Shown here: positions 3,769 to 30,514 of the stretch, in pieces
Layout: every line of letters starts with the position of its first letter
How positions within the stretch are numbered: position 1 is the first letter of the stretch
Virus record (IMG/VR): IMGVR_UViG_3300033429_000161
Span: 1-37,900 of that record
DNA length: 37,900 bases
Origin: a virus
Reading direction: 5' to 3' (one strand)
The notes under the pieces: generated by a model
Database searches by the model: none
Told to the model about the DNA's origin: nothing
Seen by the model: the letters and a program-made list of their open reading frames with translations, nothing else
Program-made: the position numbers and the translations under genes

Positions 3769-5043
3769 TTAGTACAGCGCCGGCTCAACGAGGTCGAGCA
3801 ACTGAGTATTCGCGTTGCACTTCGTGGAGCCGAGGTTAGTATAGATGCACAGGAACGCATTCCACTCATCGTAACCTGAGCGCCTGTTGAGGATATTCCC
3901 GTCAAGGTCAGCCCACCCAAGCGACTTCAACTCATATCGCTTAATGGTTCCCTTGGTTTGGAAGAATATCTTACCAGGTACACAGTCAGGATCAACGGAG
4001 ATACGAATCCTCGCATCGCCACCAGCATATGTCAGCCTCTCAAACCCACCCTCCAACTGCATCGGGGTGTAACGAATGTCAGGCTGCAACAGTGCCACGT
4101 ACTTCCGGCGCTGGCCAAGACCCATCCTGATGTCGTTGATGGTTGAGCCACCACTGTAACGAGCGAGGTCAATCGCCCTCTGCATCAGGTCAAGGGTCAA
4201 CTCCCGATCCACACTGGAGTTAGCCAGGTAATTGGCCTTCCACAGCCTCTTACCAGCGGCAGTACGGTCGATGTCCTGGAAGGTCGCCACATTGGTACCG
4301 TCGTCGATGATACCCAAGAAGCCCATAATCTCCCTCGAAGTGTCAGAGGAGGTATCATGAGTCGCCTCACGGGTAGCAGTCCTCACAACCTCAGCGGCAC
4401 TTGCTACGGTGCCAGAGGCGGTGGCATTGGCGGCACAGGTGACTATCTTCGTGGACGGGTCGATTGAGGTGATCTCGGACACGTCATTATCCGCATCGAG
4501 GGTGTTGGACTCATAGAAGTCCACAATCATCCCCTCCCGAAGATAATGAACACCTGTGGTGTTGTCACACGTGAAGGTCCACGTAGCGACGGCGGATGGA
4601 GTGGCAGCCGCACTGAGTGTAGCGAGCTTACCCCATCCATCACCAAAGGTCATTCTCCCGAGATCAGTCCTCACGTCAATGAAAGCGTTGGAAATCTCCG
4701 AAGCGAGACTGTCCGCAAAGGCCATGACGTTCGCCTTCGCAGCCGCAATTGCAGGGCCAGTGACCCTGATTGTACCATACACATACTTGGGTGTGATGGT
4801 AACCTTATCGTAACGCTGCCTCTGGGGAGTCGGCAGCGCTTCACTTTCCAACTTCGCACCGATGGCCTGGTTAGAGCCAATATGGACGGGGAAGATGTAG
4901 CCAAGACCTCCAGGCTTCCGACTCGATATCGGTAGCTCCATGTAAGTCATAGCCTCCCGCCTCTGCTGCTGCTCAATCCGAGGTCCATACACCTGCTTGA
5001 GGATGTCGGTGAGGTTGGTCAGATCAGCATAGGTAGTGGTCAT
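3769..5043 (-). CDS. Major capsid protein, HK97 fold, 424 aa
   Basis: The N-terminal arm (LTDILKQVYGPRIEQQQRR), the strand region around PVHIGSNQAIGAKLESEALPTP and the helix with ITPKYVYGTIRVTGPAIAAAKAN match the layout of HK97-fold coat proteins of tailed phages. Residues about 145-215 form a Thr/Ala-rich beta insertion that resembles an I-domain. The C-terminal half contains the spine-helix and P-domain-like stretch ending in LVEPALY. The gene directly follows the scaffold gene and precedes a strong hairpin, as expected for the most abundant late protein. No protease gene is adjacent, so assembly probably uses the separate scaffold. GGAGGAG lies 9 nt before the ATG. Confidence 0.88.
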   Translation of the reverse strand: MTTTYADLTNLTDILKQVYGPRIEQQQRREAMTYMELPISSRKPGGLGYIFPVHIGSNQAIGAKLESEALPTPQRQRYDKVTITPKYVYGTIRVTGPAIAAAKANVMAFADSLASEISNAFIDVRTDLGRMTFGDGWGKLATLSAAATPSAVATWTFTCDNTTGVHYLREGMIVDFYESNTLDADNDVSEITSIDPSTKIVTCAANATASGTVASAAEVVRTATREATHDTSSDTSREIMGFLGIIDDGTNVATFQDIDRTAAGKRLWKANYLANSSVDRELTLDLMQRAIDLARYSGGSTINDIRMGLGQRRKYVALLQPDIRYTPMQLEGGFERLTYAGGDARIRISVDPDCVPGKIFFQTKGTIKRYELKSLGWADLDGNILNRRSGYDEWNAFLCIYTNLGSTKCNANTQLLDLVEPALY

Positions 5044-18046: not shown

Positions 18047-18237
18047 CCGAGGCGGAGAGACAGTTTATGAGGGAACTACAGGCCCTGTGCGCTAAGTACG
18101 GCGTCAGGGTTGAGGACCACGACGGATACGATATGGAGGACGAGTACACAGGAACTGATTGGTACATTAGGAACGGTAAGGACGGTGAAGATATGATAGG
18201 GCTGCACATCAGTGATGTAGCAGATAACATCTTTTGA
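18043..18237 (+). CDS. Small acidic early protein, 64 aa
   Basis: The start overlaps the upstream stop (ATGA), with GGGAGG about 10 nt upstream. The N-terminus is helical (EAERQFMRELQALCAKYGV), followed by an acidic strand-rich part (DYDMEDEYTGTDWYIR-like pattern). It resembles small acidic phage proteins of unknown role. The region after it holds no gene until the promoter at 18280. Confidence 0.6.
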   Translation: MTEAERQFMRELQALCAKYGVRVEDHDGYDMEDEYTGTDWYIRNGKDGEDMIGLHISDVADNIF

Positions 18238-18278
18238 CAAACCAGGGATGTCGCCACAGGAAGGCATGAAAGAAAACT

Positions 18279-18329
18279 CTTGACAACTGTGGAGGGATGT
18301 GGATAATGGAGACATGGTTGGAGGGGAGA
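18279..18329. repeat. Left arm of inverted repeat around gene 18384-18800
   Basis: This segment, which contains the promoter, recurs in inverted form at 18807-18851. The arms share GACAACTGTGGA and GTGGAT, and an exact 14-nt block GGTTGGAGGGGAGA (18316-18329). They differ by five substitutions in the first 31 nt and an 8-nt length difference. Confidence 0.7.
18280..18307 (+). promoter_or_regulatory. Sigma-70-type promoter for gene 18384
   Basis: TTGACA (18280-18285) and GATAAT (18302-18307) are 16 bp apart. The -35 box has the shared TTGACAACT extension. The transcript would start near 18314 and carry the hairpin TCGCTAC/GTAGCGA at 18343-18362 in its leader, before the AGGAG site. Confidence 0.75.
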
Positions 18330-18383
18330 AATCCAACTCGTTTCGCTACGCGATAGTAGCGACCAGAACAGGAGATCTCCGAT

Positions 18384-18800
18384 ATGGAAAAACACAGTTT
18401 CACTTGTGCAGTCCCGGCTATGGAATGGAAGGCCGACTTCACCATCGACCAGCCCACCACCCTCGATGAGTTCCAGGAGAGGTTTGGGGTCGATGCTCTG
18501 TCGTTCGCCCTCCGCCAGATCGTGGTAAACGTACAGAATGTCGTTCGAACTGCCCGTAAGGGCACAAAGACCAAGGATGGTATCAATGACGTTGGTGCCC
18601 TCCAGGAAATCGTTGACGCCTACAAACCTGGTGTCAGGGAGATCCAGCCCGCGTCCATCAGAGCCACTACCAAGCGGCTGAAAGAGATGGATGAGGGTCA
18701 GCGTGAGAAGATTGCTGCGGCTATCGAGATGCTGGCCAGTGATCCGAAGATGCTGGAGAAACTCGCAAAGGCGGCTGCTGAAAAGGCGGCTAAAGCGTAA
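18384..18800 (+). CDS. Hypothetical protein with Ala/Lys tail, own promoter, 138 aa
   Basis: Not recognised. The N-terminal part looks beta/alpha (FTCAVPAMEWKADFTIDQP) with a following helix (ALRQIVVNVQNVVRTARKG). The C-terminus is helical and ends in an Ala/Lys-rich tail (LEKLAKAAAEKAAKA) reminiscent of nucleic-acid-binding tails. It is transcribed from a dedicated promoter, has AGGAG about 10 nt upstream, a T-rich terminator-like tract follows, and inverted copies of its promoter segment flank it. It therefore looks like an independent one-gene cassette, possibly highly expressed. Confidence 0.65.
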   Translation: MEKHSFTCAVPAMEWKADFTIDQPTTLDEFQERFGVDALSFALRQIVVNVQNVVRTARKGTKTKDGINDVGALQEIVDAYKPGVREIQPASIRATTKRLKEMDEGQREKIAAAIEMLASDPKMLEKLAKAAAEKAAKA

Positions 18801-18806
18801 AACCCC

Positions 18807-18851
18807 TCTCCCCTCCAACCACCATCCACACCCTTCCACAGTTGTCGAGAG
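18807..18851. repeat. Right arm of inverted repeat, decayed promoter copy
   Basis: Read on the minus strand, this segment matches the promoter segment at 18279-18329, but the hexamers are degraded (TTGACA to TCGACA, GATAAT to GATGGT). TCTCCCCTCCAACC at 18807-18820 is the exact complement of 18316-18329. It lies just after the stop of gene 18384-18800. Confidence 0.7.
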
Positions 18852-18876
18852 TCATCGGCAAATTGCGAATCATGTA

Positions 18877-19083
18877 CTCCCAATTTGCAGGGGGTCACCC
18901 TCCCCCCAATTTCCGACCACCCCTCCCCCCTCGGTGGGGTCTGCGCCTGGGTGGGTCCTATCCTTTCTTTTTTTATTATCTTTTTTTTTAATAAAGATAG
19001 AACACCACCCACTATGAGGGGAATAGGCACTAGGGCGGGGGGTACGGAAAAATGGGGGAGGGCCAACCCATGCAAATTGGGAG
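18877..19083. repeat. 207-bp imperfect palindrome with perfect 13-bp ends
   Basis: CTCCCAATTTGCA (18877-18889) is exactly complementary to TGCAAATTGGGAG (19071-19083). The next 26 nt inward also pair well (CCCTCCCCC against GGGGGAGGG, TTTCCG against CGGAAA). CTATC (18958-18962) pairs with GATAG (18996-19000) near the centre at about 18980, which is a T-rich tract. The left half is pyrimidine-rich, the right half purine-rich. A third GCAAATTG lies at 18858-18865. No gene is seen from 18801 to 19159. Confidence 0.65.
18917..18990 (+). terminator. Probable intrinsic terminator with long T tract
   Basis: CCACCC (18917-18922) can pair with GGGTGG (18949-18954), with further GC pairing inside. The stem is followed by a T-rich tract from 18961 to 18990. 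It would end transcripts of gene 18384-18800 before the next promoter. The stem is not compact, so this is moderate. Confidence 0.45.
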
Positions 19084-19102
19084 GAGTTGATTTGCTTTTT
19101 GC

Positions 19103-19131
19103 TTGACAACTCGATCCATCCATGATATGAT
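19103..19131 (+). promoter_or_regulatory. Sigma-70-type promoter for the 19160-22310 gene cluster
   Basis: TTGACA (19103-19108), a 17-bp spacer and TATGAT (19126-19131) make the best promoter match in the window, again with the TTGACAACT extension. The transcript would start near 19138, about 8 nt before a perfect AGGAGGTGA site. Confidence 0.82.
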
Positions 19132-19159
19132 CTAGGGACAATGAGAGGAGGTGATTTCC

Positions 19160-19282
19160 GTGAGGTGCTGTAAGTGTGGAAAGCACAGTAGGAGACGACC
19201 AGGCCTTCGTTGGGTCTCTAAAACTGGCAAGGTATTCTGGACATGCTCCAAGTGTATTCCAAAGCTAGGCTGGAGAGGCTGA
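19160..19282 (+). CDS. Tiny zinc-finger protein, 40 aa, GTG start
   Basis: The GTG at 19160 has AGGAGGTGA 5 nt upstream, directly after the promoter. The 40 residues contain CCKCGKH near the start and CSKC near the end, with basic residues between (SRRRPGLRWVSKTGK), a plausible treble-clef or zinc ribbon. The stop overlaps the next start (TGATG). It is too short for usual gene callers, but the promoter, ribosome site and cysteine spacing all support it. Confidence 0.65.
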   Translation: MRCCKCGKHSRRRPGLRWVSKTGKVFWTCSKCIPKLGWRG

Positions 19283-22160: not shown

Positions 22161-22310
22161 GTGAAGATAACATGGAAGCGCTGGGGCGTCCTCCTGGGTG
22201 CCCTACACGTAGTCTGGTGGGATTGCTGGAAGAAACGCCCATGTCTAGAGATTATCTGGAGAACACAGAACGGACCTGGTAGAGATAAGGTCCTTGTAAA
22301 CATTGGGTGA
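22161..22310 (+). CDS. Small Trp-rich hypothetical protein, 49 aa, GTG start
   Basis: The GTG at 22161 is preceded by GAGGAGGGAG at about 2-3 nt. The protein is basic and Trp-rich (KITWKRWGVLLGALHVVWWD, then CWKKRPC). A longer frame from 22074 overlaps the upstream gene and is less likely. It is the last gene before the gene-free leader at 22311-22559. The call is tentative. Confidence 0.5.
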   Translation: MKITWKRWGVLLGALHVVWWDCWKKRPCLEIIWRTQNGPGRDKVLVNIG

Positions 22311-22326
22311 GGCGGTGCGATTTCGG

Positions 22327-22355
22327 TTGACAACTCCCCTCAAATCCCCTACAAT
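22327..22355 (+). promoter_or_regulatory. Sigma-70-type promoter upstream of the recombination genes
   Basis: TTGACA (22327-22332), a 17-bp spacer and TACAAT (22350-22355), with the shared TTGACAACTC extension. The transcript would start near 22362, about 200 nt before the next start codon. Confidence 0.8.
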
Positions 22356-22361
22356 GAGGGT

Positions 22362-22490
22362 AGAATATGAGAGGTTGGTGGTAGGCTCCCTCCTCCTCTC
22401 TAGCCCACATCGAATGGAACGCGGGAACGAAGAGACGCTCAGGCAAAAGGGTAGGCTCCCACTCGGTGGGTGGTGGGAGTCTTTTTATTT
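22362..22490 (+). ncRNA. Candidate structured leader or small RNA, about 130 nt
   Basis: The segment between the promoter and the terminator has no credible reading frame. GAGAGG (22369-22374) can pair with CCTCTC (22395-22400). GGTAGGCTCCC occurs twice (22380-22390 and 22450-22460), and the second copy forms the 5' arm of the terminator, so the first copy could compete for the 3' arm. It may be a stand-alone small RNA or an attenuator or riboswitch controlling the nuclease gene downstream. The segment CTCAGGCAAAAGG resembles the 3' core of glycine riboswitches, but no closing helix was found, so I assign no class. Confidence 0.45.
22454..22490 (+). terminator. Intrinsic terminator before the recombination genes
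   Basis: GGCTCCCAC (22454-22462) pairs with GTGGGAGTC (22473-22481) with one G-U, followed by TTTTTATTT (22482-22490). It is a textbook factor-independent terminator on the plus strand, placed between a promoter and the first DNA metabolism gene. Confidence 0.8.
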
Positions 22491-22535
22491 GATCACTTGG
22501 GGACAATGGAGGGTGTCGACTCCCCCCTCCGGCGT

Positions 22536-22557
22536 CGCCCTTGACGAAAGGCGGCTG
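22536..22557 (+). promoter_or_regulatory. Hairpin that can hide the nuclease ribosome binding site
   Basis: CGCCCTT (22536-22542) pairs with AAAGGCG (22547-22553) around a GACG loop with one mismatch. The right arm is the only Shine-Dalgarno-like sequence (AAAGGCGG) before the ATG at 22560. Confidence 0.4.
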
Positions 22558-22559
22558 GC

Positions 22560-23609
22560 ATGGAGATCGAAAGACCTTTTGGCCTCGTGGTAGTCCCTGA
22601 CATCTTTGACTCCTCAATCATAGGTGACAACCAGTCCTGCCCACGGTACTACTACTGGCGTCACGTGAGAGGGGCAGAGATCGACACTCCCTCCGTTGCA
22701 CCCCACTTCGGTACATCCATCCACTCGGCATTACAGATGCACTACCTCCTCCACGACAAGAGTCTCACCGTAGAGGAGATAATGCACGCACTTACAATCA
22801 TGATGCCACCTACCAGGGATGAAAAAATCGCCTATTCCACCATCCGAGAAGCCTTCCAGGAAATCATGAACTCATCGGAGCCTATCCACGCTGCGTGTAT
22901 GATTGCGTTTGACTGGGCGTGGCAGGATATGGAGGGAGATGCGATCCGCAACAGGAACACTGCGGACGTACTCATCAATCGTTATAGGGGTTACTACCTG
23001 ACAGAACCATTCACACTTATGGAGCCACGCGAGAACTATCTCGAAGTCGGCTTCACCTACCATTTATTCGGGGACATCTACTACTTCGGCAGGATTGACA
23101 TGGTGGTAGACTGGCCACCCTACGGCAAGGTCCCTATCGACCACAAAACCTCTCGCAATCTCGGAAAGAGCAAGTTCCTCGAGTTCAACCCCTTCTTCCA
23201 GGGTGACGGCTACCTCGGGGCAGCCCGCCATCATTGGGATAGAGTTGGGGCTATCTGCGTCAACGTGTTGCAGACTGCCAAGACCAAGCATGGGTTGGAG
23301 AGGTTTATCGAACCGAGGACTGACGACCACATCGAGGCGTGGTACAGTGACGCTGTTGACTGGGTCTCGGAAATCCTGGAGAGGTTCGAGAAGTGGAGGT
23401 GGCCTAGAGACAAAGGCGGCTATGGCGGCTACTGCACTCATTGGGGTGCGTGCCAGTTCAGATCACTCTGTGTCTCCCACGATTACATGACAGTTGAACA
23501 ATGCGACAGACAGCCCATCCCCGGCGGCTATATCGAGAACAGATGGGAGCCTTGGGATACTGGAGCGATCACAACGACGGTAGAGGATCTCAAAGAAGGG
23601 AGGGCATGA
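22560..23609 (+). CDS. PD-(D/E)XK nuclease, Cas4/RecB-like with Fe-S cysteines, 349 aa
   Basis: This is a PD-(D/E)XK-superfamily exonuclease of the Cas4/RecB/AddB type. Seen are GxxxH (FGTSIHSAL, H55), a Glu in YLEVGF (E162), the metal-binding Asp in GRIDMVV (D180), IDHKTS (D194, K196) and QxxxY (Q214-Y218). C27 in NQSCPRYYY together with C292, C298 and C304 (CTHWGACQFRSLC) forms the four-cysteine Fe-S pattern. Such enzymes process DNA ends for recombination, consistent with the Sak4-like gene nearby. It is the first gene after the promoter and terminator leader. It overlaps the next gene as ATGA. Confidence 0.85.
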   Translation: MEIERPFGLVVVPDIFDSSIIGDNQSCPRYYYWRHVRGAEIDTPSVAPHFGTSIHSALQMHYLLHDKSLTVEEIMHALTIMMPPTRDEKIAYSTIREAFQEIMNSSEPIHAACMIAFDWAWQDMEGDAIRNRNTADVLINRYRGYYLTEPFTLMEPRENYLEVGFTYHLFGDIYYFGRIDMVVDWPPYGKVPIDHKTSRNLGKSKFLEFNPFFQGDGYLGAARHHWDRVGAICVNVLQTAKTKHGLERFIEPRTDDHIEAWYSDAVDWVSEILERFEKWRWPRDKGGYGGYCTHWGACQFRSLCVSHDYMTVEQCDRQPIPGGYIENRWEPWDTGAITTTVEDLKEGRA

Positions 23610-25897: not shown

Positions 25898-26116
25898 ATG
25901 AAACCTATCAAGGTCGCCTTCGAGTGCGACCCCACCCTGTACGAGAAGTTCCGACGTATCTACTCCGGTCACGGAGACGTATCCCGATTTCTAAGAAAGG
26001 TAATCCACCGAGTTGTCCAGCGCGTTGAGGCTGAAGGGACTATCGGTTTGGGTAAGGCTGAGATAGATATAACCACTGATATAGTTAATGAGGACATAGA
26101 CAGGGGGAGGATATGA
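25898..26116 (+). CDS. Ribbon-helix-helix-like DNA-binding protein, 72 aa
   Basis: The first 50 residues read as a strand (IKVAFECDPTLYEKF), a helix and a second helix (VSRFLRKVIHRVVQRVEAEG), the pattern of Arc/CopG/MetJ-type ribbon-helix-helix regulators, which bind short palindromes as dimers. The C-terminal part is acidic. AAGGAG lies 5 nt before the ATG. It overlaps the next gene as ATGA. It is the best candidate in the window for a palindrome-binding regulator, though nothing shows which site it binds. Confidence 0.5.
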   Translation: MKPIKVAFECDPTLYEKFRRIYSGHGDVSRFLRKVIHRVVQRVEAEGTIGLGKAEIDITTDIVNEDIDRGRI

Positions 26117-26358
26117 GCAACGTAGTCAAGATCCTACTGGGGAAGGCTCCCCATGAGATGGACGACGATGAACTCGCCGAACACATACGCAACGTGCGCA
26201 AGCTGCGGGGAGACGCATTCGTCTCTGGCAGACACGGTAAGAAGGCTAAGAGTATGGCCTCGGGTGGTAAGGAGGCCAAGGGATTCACTGATCTATGCAA
26301 CCAGCTTGGGGTGGACGCCGACACTCTGGTTGACCTACTCGCGGAGGTTATAGAATGA
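26113..26358 (+). CDS. Hypothetical protein, 81 aa
   Basis: Coupled by ATGA overlaps on both sides, to the ribbon-helix-helix-like gene and to the ParB/methyltransferase gene, with GGGGAGG about 4 nt before its start. The protein has an acidic start (HEMDDDELAEHIRNVRKL), a basic middle (GRHGKKAKSMASGGKEAK) and an acidic helical end (LGVDADTLVDLLAEVIE). It may serve the methyltransferase. Function unknown. Confidence 0.6.
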   Translation: MSNVVKILLGKAPHEMDDDELAEHIRNVRKLRGDAFVSGRHGKKAKSMASGGKEAKGFTDLCNQLGVDADTLVDLLAEVIE

Positions 26359-27956
26359 AGGTTGACGAGAAGATCCACGTTATCGTACCCACCTCAGTTC
26401 ACATCCCTCAGGACAGACAACGCCAGGACCTAGGCGACCTCTCCGAACTGAAGGATTCCATCTCCGAGGTAGGCCAAATCCAGCCCATCGTAGTCGAGGT
26501 CATGGTCGCTGAGGATGGCAGTCAGTACTTCCAACTGGTCGCAGGACAGAGAAGGTTAGAGGCCTGTCGAGAGCTGGAGATATATGTCTCCGCTGTCTAC
26601 TGGCACGAGCTGACGGAGTTCGAGAGGGGGAGGATAGAGTTAGATGAAAACATCAGACGAAAACAACTCAGTTGGCATGAGAGGGACGCTGCGGAAAAAA
26701 GACTCGTTCTTATTGCAGCCGACCAGGGAATATCACTTCGGTCCGTCGCCACTACTATGGAGTCGTCTGCTGGAGGACTTTCAGATCGTGTGGCTATGGC
26801 AGATGCGGTGGAGGTCTTTCCTCAACTTAAGCAGTGTAAGTCCCGTCATGAAGCTGCAAAAACCCTCAAGAACCTCATGCACCAAGAGCTCATCGAAGAA
26901 CAGATGAGGCGTGAGAAGGAGAAGGCTGATGGAGAGATCAAGAAGTCTGATGAACTCGACCTATCAATATTTGAGGGAAAGATGCTTAACGGAACTTTCG
27001 GAATCGACTCCAAACAATACCCTGAGGGTAGCGCTGACATTGTCTTGTTTGACCCTCCTTTTGGAATCGAGCTACAAGATACTAAACAAAAGGACTACTC
27101 CGCGACAGCTAGCCAGCGTTCCGAAGGTATATATAAGGACTCACGTGAGGCGTTCGTAGAGCTCTTTCCACAGTGGATCGAGGAAATATACCGCCTCATG
27201 GCTCCCAACTCCCACCTCTGGGTATTCTTCGGAGTTGAGTGGTATCCCTTCATCGCACAGCAGCTACACGACAAGGGCTTTCGCTATGATAAGATCCCCT
27301 ACATCTGGCATAAGCAGGGCTCCTCTGGACAGACTAACAACCCCAACTACTACGCGGGGAGGGTATATGAAACCTTCATGTTTGCGTGGAAAGGCGAGCA
27401 GACGCTTGCGAGGCGAGGGCTTCCGAACGTCATCGAGGCACCGGTTATCCCTTCGCAGGATAAGATACATGAGACTGAGAAGCCACTCCTGCTACTCGAC
27501 AACATTCTTAGACGATCGTACTGGCCTGGAGCGTGTGTTCTTGATCCCATGTTCGGTAGCGGGTCGACGTTTAGAGCCCTCATGGGACTTGGTACCACTA
27601 AGTTCTTTGGTTGGGAACTGTCTAAAGAAAAGAGAGATAGGTCGCTTCTTAAGGCTCTGGCTCATGCACGGAACCTTGTCACAACGCCTGGATTCAGCCT
27701 CACGCATTATGACGAGGTCGCCAGGGTGGTGGAGTCAGTCTACGAAATAGGCCAGCGTATCAAGTGGCTGACCCAGACTGACGAGGAGCAGACTGGCACC
27801 ATCATCGAGATAAACATGCAGTATAGCAAGCTGCTAGTGGACCCAGATGATAAGAACTTCGGCTGGAACAAGAGGCACAATCCAGATGGACGGCCAAGAA
27901 ACTTCAGCTACCCAGTCAAGCCCGAGAAAGTTATTGAAGTCTTGCCGGAGCTGTAG
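26355..27956 (+). CDS. ParB-like domain fused to DNA methyltransferase, 533 aa
   Basis: The N-terminal 115 residues are a ParB/Srx-type domain: QIQPIVVEVM, the GERR-like LVAGQRRLEAC (61-71) and ENIRRKQLSWHERDAAEKRL. A helix-turn-helix-like stretch follows (120-175) and then a charged linker. The C-terminal part is an amino-methyltransferase: catalytic DPPF (233-236), KPLLLL (376-381) and the SAM-binding DPMFGSGST (397-405) and FFGWEL. Motif IV before motif I gives a beta-class order. It would modify phage DNA, perhaps guided by the ParB-like part, or protect it from host restriction. No nuclease partner is adjacent, so it is an orphan enzyme. Confidence 0.85.
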   Translation: MKVDEKIHVIVPTSVHIPQDRQRQDLGDLSELKDSISEVGQIQPIVVEVMVAEDGSQYFQLVAGQRRLEACRELEIYVSAVYWHELTEFERGRIELDENIRRKQLSWHERDAAEKRLVLIAADQGISLRSVATTMESSAGGLSDRVAMADAVEVFPQLKQCKSRHEAAKTLKNLMHQELIEEQMRREKEKADGEIKKSDELDLSIFEGKMLNGTFGIDSKQYPEGSADIVLFDPPFGIELQDTKQKDYSATASQRSEGIYKDSREAFVELFPQWIEEIYRLMAPNSHLWVFFGVEWYPFIAQQLHDKGFRYDKIPYIWHKQGSSGQTNNPNYYAGRVYETFMFAWKGEQTLARRGLPNVIEAPVIPSQDKIHETEKPLLLLDNILRRSYWPGACVLDPMFGSGSTFRALMGLGTTKFFGWELSKEKRDRSLLKALAHARNLVTTPGFSLTHYDEVARVVESVYEIGQRIKWLTQTDEEQTGTIIEINMQYSKLLVDPDDKNFGWNKRHNPDGRPRNFSYPVKPEKVIEVLPEL

Positions 27957-28098
27957 ACACGCTCTACTACGGGAAGAAAGAAAAAGGCACTTCAACTATG
28001 AGGCCTGCTCGCTCGGTCAGATACCTATGATGCCTACGCTACCAGACTACTGGAGGTGTGGCTTCTGGCGAAGGAAGGAGAAAACTGATGGCGGCTAA
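27934..28098 (+). CDS. Small zinc-binding protein, 54 aa, TTG start
   Basis: A short frame overlaps the end of the methyltransferase gene and the start of the polymerase gene. The TTG at 27934 with GAGAAAG upstream gives MKSCRSCRHALLREERKRH, then EACSLG and WRCGFWRRKEK, a CxxC...C...C zinc site typical of small phage proteins. The same frame is open further upstream, but that part is antisense-like to the methyltransferase reading and has no binding site. The cysteine pattern is the main support. Confidence 0.6.
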   Translation: MKSCRSCRHALLREERKRHFNYEACSLGQIPMMPTLPDYWRCGFWRRKEKTDGG

Positions 28099-30514
28099 TG
28101 TTCCTGGAGAGGGGTCTCCTGAAGCCAAGATGGTCGTGTTCGGGCAGTCCCCTGGAAAGGATGAGATGATTGAGGGGAGACCCTTCGTTGGCCCGGCCGG
28201 CCGTGTGTATGACCAGATACTACACAATGCGAAGGTGCTTAGGTCCAGGATCTGGACTGATAACATGGCACACTCCCAGCCACCCAACAATAAGATAGGG
28301 TCCTTCTTCGAGGGTCGAGCGCCTGGAGAGCGTGGCACTTCAAAGATAGTACCTAAGCCCATCTTGGAGGAATGGATCGAGGAGAACCGACAACTCATAG
28401 CAAGGATGAAGCCAAATGTTATTGTACCACTCGGAAACGAGGCCTTGTGGATGTGTACTGGCCTGGAAGGAATTGCCAAGTGGCGAGGGAGCATCCTATC
28501 TAGCTGGGATTACTTTGTCCCTGGATTTAAAGTCATTCCGACCTACCACCCCTCCTATCTTCAGAGAGGGGCTACTCATCTGCAACCTCTCGTGGAAGCA
28601 GACTTCAGACGGGCTAAGTCTGACAGTGACTTTCCCGAGAAGCGGCTTCCCAAGCCCACCTATCATATCAACCCATCACTTAGGGAAGTGATAGACTTCA
28701 TCGGCCATGTCTCAGAGAATGATTGGTGCTCCTGCGATATTGAGACACGCTACTCGCAGACACTAACTGTCGGCCTAGCGTGTGCGATTAATGAGGCCAT
28801 GTGCATCCCATTCACTGATGGTGGCCAGCCAAGGTGGGACGTGGATGAAGAGACCGCCATCTGGAGAGCCCTCTCAGTCCTGCTACAGAACCACGAGGGG
28901 ATATGTGGCCAGAACTTTATCTATGACGCAAGTGTCCTGGCTCGGTGGCACCGGATAGCCTGTGCACTACCGAGGATAGATACGATGGTTGCGTGGCATG
29001 AATGTTACCCTGCTCTACCGAAAGGCCTGGATACGATAACCTCAGTCCTGACACGCCACCCTTACTACAAGGGCGAAAAGAAAGAGTGGATGGGCAAGAT
29101 CAACGATGCCAAACTCCGCACTTACAACTGCACTGATGTAGTGTCTACCCTTGAGAGTGGTATGAAGCTGGAGCGCGAGCTCGAGAACTGGGGTGTGAGA
29201 CAAGGGTATGACTTCCAGATGGGGCTGCAATTCCCTGGAACGAAGATGATAGTCAAAGGCATGAGGTGTAGTGGTGAGGAGAAAGACAAACTGACGACTC
29301 ACTACTGCAAGGTTCGTGACGAGTCTCAGGCCCGCATCGACTTCGTAGCTGGACGGCATGTAAACGTTAGGTCACCACAACTCAAGAACTTCCTCTACGT
29401 TGAGTTAGGGCTGCCAGCTCGATTCGACAAGTACACTGGAAATCCCACCACCAACAAGGACGCACTCCTCCGCATCAAGTCCGTCTTGCCAGATAGCGAT
29501 CCAAGGAAGATTCTTATCTCCGACGTGATCAACGTCAGCGAGATGCGTAAGCTGATCGAGAGCTACGCAGATGTGAAGGTTGACCCGTGGGACGGGAGGA
29601 TGAGGTTCTCCTACTCCGTGGCAGGGACTGAAACTTGGAGAGGGGTGATGGGGAAGTCCATCTTCGGTGGTGGCTTCTCTATGCAGACTGCGCCAGTTCG
29701 CACCACCGAGGGAAGGAAGATACGACAACTCTTTGTAGCAGACGAGGGTAAGCGGTTGGCTAACATGGACCTCGCACGGGCTGAGGCTATGCTAGTCGCA
29801 TGGATGGCTAACGAAGTCCTAATGATCGAGATGTTCCAGCGAGGGGAGGACACTCACTGGCACAATGCGAAGTTGATTGCCCAGGAGCTGGGGATGAAGG
29901 ACGTCACGATGGATACTGTCTACAACCCCGAGGATGATGAGCACTACCATCTCCGCTACGCTGGCAAACAGTGTGCACATGCCATCCACTACAAGATGGG
30001 GCCTCGAGTTATGAGGGGTACGCTACTGACACACGGCCTGGACCTGCCAGAAAAAACCTGTAAGTCCATCATCGTGACCTATCGCGTCCAGCGACCTGCC
30101 ATACCACAGTGGCATCTCCGTGTGGACTACGATCTGAAACGGACGAGAACTATCACTACCCCTAGCGTAGGGGGAGTGGTAAAGAAGAGGGTCTTCTTCG
30201 GGAGGGCTGATGATGCGTTACTTCGTGAGGCACTGGCGTTTAACCCACAGTGTACAACTGGCCTTATCTTACATACCATACTCCAGAGAACCAGCGACGA
30301 GTTCACGCATAAAGGTCTGGATATTCTCCAAGAGTCGCATGATAGTTTTCTCTTTCAGTTTCCTGAGGATTGGGACGAAGTGGCCCTCTTCAATAAGATA
30401 GACGAGTTCGGAGACCTCCCTATGATGATTGGAGGACGAGAGCTGAACATCCCTCGTGAGTTCGAGACTGGACCTACGTGGGGAGATATGAAGGAAGTCA
30501 AACTCGAGTACTGA
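28088..30514 (+). CDS. DNA polymerase I with N-terminal uracil-DNA-glycosylase-like domain, 808 aa
   Basis: I chose the ATG at 28088, with AAGGAGG-like AGGAAGGAG 7 nt upstream, over a GTG at 28058. Residues about 14-172 are a family-4/5-like uracil-DNA glycosylase domain: GQSPGKDEMIEGRPFVGPAG (19-38), TDNMAHSQPPNNK, a middle PLGNEAL and TYHPSYLQR (152-160). The Fe-S cysteines of family 4 are missing. The 3'-5' exonuclease is complete (DIE at 217-219, N276-D280, Y346-D350). The polymerase has motif A (DLARAE, D561), motif B (R623, K627, then H631) and motif C (HDS, H751-D752). It is the replicative polymerase of the phage. A similar fusion is known in SPO1-type polymerase. Confidence 0.88.
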   Translation: MAANVPGEGSPEAKMVVFGQSPGKDEMIEGRPFVGPAGRVYDQILHNAKVLRSRIWTDNMAHSQPPNNKIGSFFEGRAPGERGTSKIVPKPILEEWIEENRQLIARMKPNVIVPLGNEALWMCTGLEGIAKWRGSILSSWDYFVPGFKVIPTYHPSYLQRGATHLQPLVEADFRRAKSDSDFPEKRLPKPTYHINPSLREVIDFIGHVSENDWCSCDIETRYSQTLTVGLACAINEAMCIPFTDGGQPRWDVDEETAIWRALSVLLQNHEGICGQNFIYDASVLARWHRIACALPRIDTMVAWHECYPALPKGLDTITSVLTRHPYYKGEKKEWMGKINDAKLRTYNCTDVVSTLESGMKLERELENWGVRQGYDFQMGLQFPGTKMIVKGMRCSGEEKDKLTTHYCKVRDESQARIDFVAGRHVNVRSPQLKNFLYVELGLPARFDKYTGNPTTNKDALLRIKSVLPDSDPRKILISDVINVSEMRKLIESYADVKVDPWDGRMRFSYSVAGTETWRGVMGKSIFGGGFSMQTAPVRTTEGRKIRQLFVADEGKRLANMDLARAEAMLVAWMANEVLMIEMFQRGEDTHWHNAKLIAQELGMKDVTMDTVYNPEDDEHYHLRYAGKQCAHAIHYKMGPRVMRGTLLTHGLDLPEKTCKSIIVTYRVQRPAIPQWHLRVDYDLKRTRTITTPSVGGVVKKRVFFGRADDALLREALAFNPQCTTGLILHTILQRTSDEFTHKGLDILQESHDSFLFQFPEDWDEVALFNKIDEFGDLPMMIGGRELNIPREFETGPTWGDMKEVKLEY

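What the first reader, a model, noticed from the sequence alone, without database searches (positions are those of the whole stretch)
22327..22490. Short promoter-to-terminator unit upstream of recombination genes
A strong promoter is followed about 125 nt later by a textbook intrinsic terminator in a gene-free region. The 11-nt word GGTAGGCTCCC occurs twice, the second time as the 5' arm of the terminator, so an alternative antiterminator pairing is possible. The unit is either a phage small RNA or a conditional leader for the nuclease-Sak4-SSB-polymerase genes. A segment CTCAGGCAAAAGG resembles the 3' core of glycine riboswitches, but the closing helix is not seen.
Basis: partly seen in the sequence, partly recalled or inferred. 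Interest (0 to 1): 0.65.

Follow-up and report, generated by a model that had tools for sequence, protein, structure and literature searches.

The report
Phage promoter-terminator leader before nuclease gene
A phage genome carries a good promoter followed about 130 bases later by a strong stop signal for transcription, just before its DNA-recombination genes; it is probably an ordinary short leader RNA or small RNA that limits expression of those genes, and nothing marks it as a riboswitch or a new mechanism.

Summary
The basic observation is right. A sigma-70-type promoter (TTGACA-17-TACAAT, 22327-22355) is followed by the strongest plus-strand terminator of the record (hairpin 22453-22482 plus U tract), predicting an RNA of about 128 nt. 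The promoter is very likely real: TTGACAACT plus a -10 box occurs four times in the record and never in 200 shuffles. The terminator beats 499 of 500 shuffles. The stretch is open in one frame but does not score as coding. The 11-nt repeat is at chance level. The two copies are identical, not complementary, so copy 1 cannot sequester the terminator's 5' arm. Predicted antiterminator pairing is no better than for shuffled leaders. Rfam gives no glycine riboswitch even at E<=10. No relative of the RNA was found in about 3 Mb of loci from related phages, so covariation cannot be tested. No good promoter lies between the terminator and the nuclease gene, so the nuclease-Sak4-SSB genes probably need read-through. 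My reading: a terminated leader that throttles this operon (leaky or factor-controlled), releasing a ~128-nt RNA; a trans-acting sRNA is the main rival. It is an ordinary kind of element; the exact mechanism is unproven.

The parts
22327..22355 (+). Promoter, sigma-70 type: -35 TTGACA 22327-22332, 17-nt spacer, -10 TACAAT 22350-22355
   Evidence: one of four TTGACAACT promoters of the record, none in 200 shuffles
22362..22488 (+). Predicted terminated RNA of about 128 nt (start site inferred 6-8 nt after the -10 box; 3' end in the U tract)
   Evidence: Inference from promoter and terminator; fold z = 0.21; non-coding codon score
22369..22400 (+). 5' hairpin GAGAGG...CCUCUC, about -13.8 kcal/mol, not better than shuffles
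22380..22390 (+). First copy of GGTAGGCTCCC (chance-level repeat)
22438..22450 (+). CTCAGGCAAAAGG, resembles glycine riboswitch 3' core; no aptamer found
22453..22490 (+). Intrinsic terminator: 11-bp stem 22453-22463/22472-22482, 8-nt loop, then U tract; overlaps the second GGTAGGCTCCC copy (22450-22460)
   Evidence: -17.7 kcal/mol; 1 of 500 shuffles as good
22560..23609 (+). First gene downstream: PD-(D/E)XK nuclease, start about 77 nt after the hairpin
   Evidence: PF12705, E 2.6e-13; phrog_1218
22161..22310 (+). Upstream small ORF (49 codons), ends 17 nt before the -35 box
   Evidence: Shine-Dalgarno-like AGGAGGGA before GTG 22161

Best explanation
A short non-coding leader transcription unit heads the nuclease-Sak4-SSB replication/recombination operon. 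Host RNA polymerase starts at P22327, makes about 128 nt and mostly stops at T22485, as does early transcription arriving from P19103. Only the fraction that reads through, through simple leakiness or a factor that suppresses termination, reaches the nuclease and the genes after it. The unit thus sets the level, and possibly the timing, of this operon and releases a ~128-nt RNA as by-product. Shown: promoter and terminator as sequence features, absence of a coding signal, and no consensus promoter between terminator and nuclease. Inferred: that both work in the host, that downstream genes depend on read-through, and that termination is modulated.
For: The promoter belongs to a set of four near-identical phage promoters, and the terminator is far better than chance. 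Between 22485 and 26330 no plus-strand site scores 10 of 12 or better, and the only 9 of 12 site listed there is at 26058. Nuclease, Sak4-like ATPase and SSB-like genes therefore appear to depend on transcripts crossing T22485. Within about 3 Mb of related-phage loci, promoter-to-terminator spacing below about 210 nt with no ORF is rare (3 pairs, against 0-1 in five shuffles). Of the two others, L016 has the same order: a 12 of 12 promoter at 1472, a terminator ending 126 nt later, then an early operon with a Shine-Dalgarno/ATG at 1699 and no consensus promoter between. L014, L102 and L117 also place a strong terminator 58-90 nt before the homologous nuclease gene, so a terminator right before this gene recurs.
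Against: No alternative (antiterminator) fold stands out from shuffles. No known antiterminator protein or site was recognised, though the early genes were searched only partly against family libraries. In L102, L117 and L126 the terminator simply ends a small gene. Most of the 69 relatives have neither promoter nor terminator before the nuclease, so the element is not conserved. Promoters of other classes downstream would remove the need for read-through. The host is unknown.
Confidence: 0.5

Rival explanations
1. A free-standing phage small RNA that acts in trans by base-pairing, for example through its CU-rich stretch CUCCCUCCUCCUCUCU (22386-22401) on ribosome-binding sites, like anti-Shine-Dalgarno sRNAs.
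For: Promoter and terminator closely bracket a non-coding RNA of typical sRNA length. The stretch is one of only four pyrimidine runs of 13 or more in 17.4-31.7 kb and is complementary to GAGAGGAGG at about 19143-19151, the RBS behind P19103. Anti-SD CCUCCUCCC motifs in alpha-r14 sRNAs are documented (PMC10746234).
Against: The CCUCUC part is buried in the 5' hairpin (unpaired probability near 0). Predicted duplexes with phage RBSs (mean -22.6) are no better than with coding windows (-22.6). The Rfam alpha-r14 match is noise (13.4 bits, cut-off 58.8). No conservation was found.
Confidence: 0.28
2. A boundary by accident: P22327 and T22485 are an early promoter and an operon-end terminator left next to each other after a promoter-gene-terminator cassette lost its gene. 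The RNA has no role.
For: L014 has promoter-like site, short ORF, terminator, nuclease; L102 and L117 have small gene, terminator, nuclease. A small gene weakly resembling these (24-26% identity) sits in the window at 18384-18800 with its own TTGACAACT promoter and terminator. The leader itself folds no better than shuffles.
Against: Sequence comparison of the 22311-22600 and 18200-19160 units finds nothing beyond the promoter word. The protein resemblance is weak and not detected by tblastn at 1e-3.
Confidence: 0.15
3. A ligand- or ribosome-controlled attenuator: glycine-type riboswitch, or Trp-codon leader peptide (AUG AGA GGU UGG UGG UAG, 22367-22384).
For: CTCAGGCAAAAGG equals the glycine aptamer 3' core (own knowledge); the only complete small ORF in the RNA reads MRGWW with tandem Trp codons.
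Against: RF00504: no match at E<=10 while the same search rings in control genomes. No Rfam family of any kind matches above its cut-off. The AUG lies only about 5 nt from the inferred start, with no Shine-Dalgarno. A ribosome stalled there would not free a segment that pairs with the terminator's 5' arm. Antiterminator energy equals shuffles.
Confidence: 0.04

Closest known systems
Lambdoid late leader PR'-6S RNA-tR' with Q antitermination (own knowledge)
   Same: Promoter, about 130-200 nt of non-coding leader, intrinsic terminator, then an operon with no other promoter
   Different: No Q-like protein or qut site identified here; placed before recombination/replication genes, not late genes; no homology tested or seen
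Terminated 5' UTR RNAs that both attenuate and act as sRNA, e.g. Listeria Rli51 (PMC11394854, listed)
   Same: A prematurely terminated leader gives a short RNA upstream of a gene
   Different: No sequence relation; no trans target shown here
Alpha-r14 / anti-Shine-Dalgarno sRNAs (RF02344; PMC10746234)
   Same: Similar length, 3' intrinsic terminator, CU-rich CCUCCUC stretch
   Different: 13.4 bits against a cut-off of 58.8; one stretch, mostly paired, not three exposed loops
Glycine riboswitch RF00504
   Same: 13-nt word CTCAGGCAAAAGG
   Different: No aptamer match at E<=10

Membership tests
Glycine riboswitch (RF00504) | Covariance-model match to the aptamer | tested here: not met
   No match at E<=10; the control genomes rang
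Alpha-r14 sRNA (RF02344) | Covariance-model score above 58.8 bits | tested here: not met
   13.4 bits, E 2.1
Alpha-r14 sRNA (RF02344) | Three hairpins each exposing CCUCCUCCC | tested here: not met
   One CU-rich stretch, its CCUCUC part paired
Terminated leader (attenuator-type) in front of an operon | Promoter, non-coding leader, intrinsic terminator, gene, with no other promoter in between | tested here: met
   (sequence level only)
Terminated leader (attenuator-type) in front of an operon | Mutually exclusive antiterminator fold | tested here: inconclusive
   An alternative pairing appears at an intermediate length, but its energy equals shuffled leaders
Terminated leader (attenuator-type) in front of an operon | Regulated read-through in vivo | not testable with these tools
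   Needs RNA-seq/Term-seq or reporter fusions
Phage trans-acting sRNA | Own promoter and terminator around a non-coding stretch | tested here: met
Phage trans-acting sRNA | Specific target pairing | tested here: inconclusive
   Phage RBS duplexes are no better than coding windows; host targets could not be tested
Lambda-Q-type antitermination leader | Q-like protein and qut site | not tested
   No specific search made; the early proteins that were scanned gave no such family

The most novel reading that the evidence does not exclude
The unit is a phage leader whose terminator is switched by an unrecognised phage- or host-encoded antitermination factor, giving delayed expression of the recombination-replication operon; L016 would carry an unrelated sequence of the same design before its early operon.
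Probability: 0.12. Interest if true: 0.45.

Novelty: new member of a known kind. Interest (0 to 1): 0.22.

Why it matters
If termination here is regulated, it would show how a group of small uncultured phages, with a polymerase carrying a uracil-DNA-glycosylase-like domain and a Sak4 recombination module, times its replication genes using only host RNA polymerase. If not, it is a routine leader or sRNA. Either way the four shared promoters give a usable transcription map of the phage.

Tried and rejected
Rfam at gathering score and at E<=10, and a dedicated RF00504 search with controls: nothing. DNA relatives: none in annotated phages; the one exact 18-mer hit in viral contigs (L004) shares only that word and lies in unrelated sequence that looks like tail genes. 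Nuclease and polymerase single-sequence scans found no close relative. Profile scans with polymerase and primase gave 160 distant loci, polymerase at most 33% identical and primase at most 46%. Capsid relatives (about 45%) lack a detectable nuclease or polymerase match. blastn of the unit in all loci gave chance hits only. A covariance model of the RNA itself found only chance hits (best E 0.36, inside the polymerase gene of L016). Covariation analysis was therefore impossible. Ideas rejected: antiterminator by the 11-nt repeat, Trp leader peptide, hidden gene 22303-22593, anti-SD targeting of phage RBSs. Comparison with the 18280-18962 promoter-gene-terminator unit showed no common origin beyond the promoter word.

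Full report
What was checked. The window is a whole IMG/VR virus record of 37,900 bases. Position 22327 has TTGACA, 17 nt, TACAAT; 22453-22482 is an 11-bp hairpin with an 8-nt loop, followed by a U tract. The hairpin alone folds at -17.7 kcal/mol, and only 1 of 500 dinucleotide shuffles of the terminator region folds as well. It is the best-scoring plus-strand terminator of the record in my scan.

The promoter is real by pattern. TTGACAACT followed by a -10-like hexamer occurs at 22327+, 19103+, 18280+ and 16201-, and in none of 200 dinucleotide shuffles. The sites are sensibly placed: before the structural genes on the minus strand (16201), before the 138-aa gene 18384-18800 with its own terminator at 18933-18962 (18280), before the early small genes (19103), and before the unit in question (22327).

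No gene in the unit. One plus frame is open from 22303 to 22593, but its codon score (-0.06 per codon) resembles non-coding frames, while the main trained genes of this phage score +0.04 to +0.26. The only complete small ORF in the RNA is MRGWW (22367-22384). The unit lies between the small ORF 22161-22310 and the PD-(D/E)XK nuclease 22560-23609.

The RNA has no remarkable structure apart from the terminator. The z-score of the 130-nt fold is 0.21, and 76 of 500 shuffles match the 5' hairpin. The 11-mer repeat is at chance level, since three places in the record have 11-mers repeated within 100 nt. Because the two copies are identical, the first can only compete with the 5' arm for the 3' arm. 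Such pairing is not predicted above probability 0.1. A different pairing, GGUGG 22377-22381 with CCACU 22459-22463, appears at one intermediate transcript length. However, upstream pairing of the 5' arm in the nascent leader is worth -4.5 kcal/mol against a mean of -5.0 in shuffles.

The glycine riboswitch is excluded at the level of tools: no RF00504 match at E<=10, while the same search finds it in control genomes. No other Rfam family reaches its cut-off.

Relatives. The replication module is a nuclease, a Sak4-like ATPase, a ParB-methyltransferase, a polymerase with a uracil-DNA-glycosylase-like domain, and a primase. It is shared with a broad set of phages, including MW202489, Microcystis phage Mel-JY34 and Desulfofustis phage LS06-2018-MD01, and with 160 viral loci, all distant. 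None has DNA similar to the unit, and a covariance model of the RNA finds only chance hits in 2.6 Mb. Conservation and covariation can therefore not be judged.

Comparison of architecture. In most relatives the nuclease gene follows the preceding gene directly. A strong terminator 58-90 nt before it occurs in L014, L102 and L117, and one further upstream in L126; there the terminator ends a small gene. L038 has a 12 of 12 promoter 226 nt upstream, before a small ORF. A promoter with a terminator 60-210 nt downstream and no ORF between was found three times in all loci and the window, against 0-1 in five triplet shuffles: in the window, in L016 (P 1472, T 1596-1626, before an early operon at 1699), and in L053, where by eye the promoter-like site lies in the 3' end of an ORF.

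Mechanism. Any transcript from P22327 or from upstream early promoters must cross T22485 to reach the nuclease, and no plus-strand site of 10 of 12 or better lies between 22485 and 26330 (the only 9 of 12 site there is at 26058). I therefore favour a terminated leader that throttles the nuclease-Sak4-SSB operon, either by fixed leakiness or by a factor not yet seen (0.5). A trans-acting sRNA is the main rival (0.28). Its CU-rich anti-SD-like stretch is mostly paired and does not prefer RBSs over coding windows. A functionless juxtaposition (0.15) and an aptamer or leader peptide (0.04) complete the list. None of these steps is shown experimentally.

Verdict. The interesting extras, antiterminator repeat and glycine core, do not survive.

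Noticed in passing
window 18280-18962: Self-contained unit: TTGACAACT promoter, 138-aa gene (18384-18800) with no family match, CU-rich 3' UTR and strong terminator. Its protein weakly resembles small proteins located before the nuclease in L102 and L126 (24-26% identity).
   Followed up: partly
window 16201-16173 (-), 18280, 19103, 22327: Four promoters sharing TTGACAACT, probably the main host-polymerase promoter set of this phage.
   Followed up: yes
window 28058-30511: DNA polymerase A with an N-terminal uracil-DNA-glycosylase-like domain (PF03167) in one protein; the same arrangement aligns in MW202489 and Mel-JY34, where it is annotated only as DNA polymerase.
   Followed up: partly
window 26355-27953: ParB N-terminal domain fused to an N6/N4 DNA methyltransferase; seen near the polymerase in most related loci.
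   Followed up: no
L016 1472-1626: Perfect 12 of 12 promoter followed by a terminator 126 nt downstream ahead of an early operon: same layout as the window unit, no sequence similarity; weak sub-threshold Rfam matches only (ohsC, E 0.04).
   Followed up: partly
window 3772-5043 (-): Major head protein matches phrog_14242 and, at 26-27% identity, Arthrobacter and Microbacterium phages; closer relatives (about 45%) exist in viral contigs without a detectable match to this replication module.
   Followed up: partly
window 22505-22559: After the terminator, inverted repeats (GGAGGG...CCCTCC; CGCC..UU/AA..GGCG) lie over the ribosome-binding site of the nuclease gene; possible translational control.
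   Followed up: no
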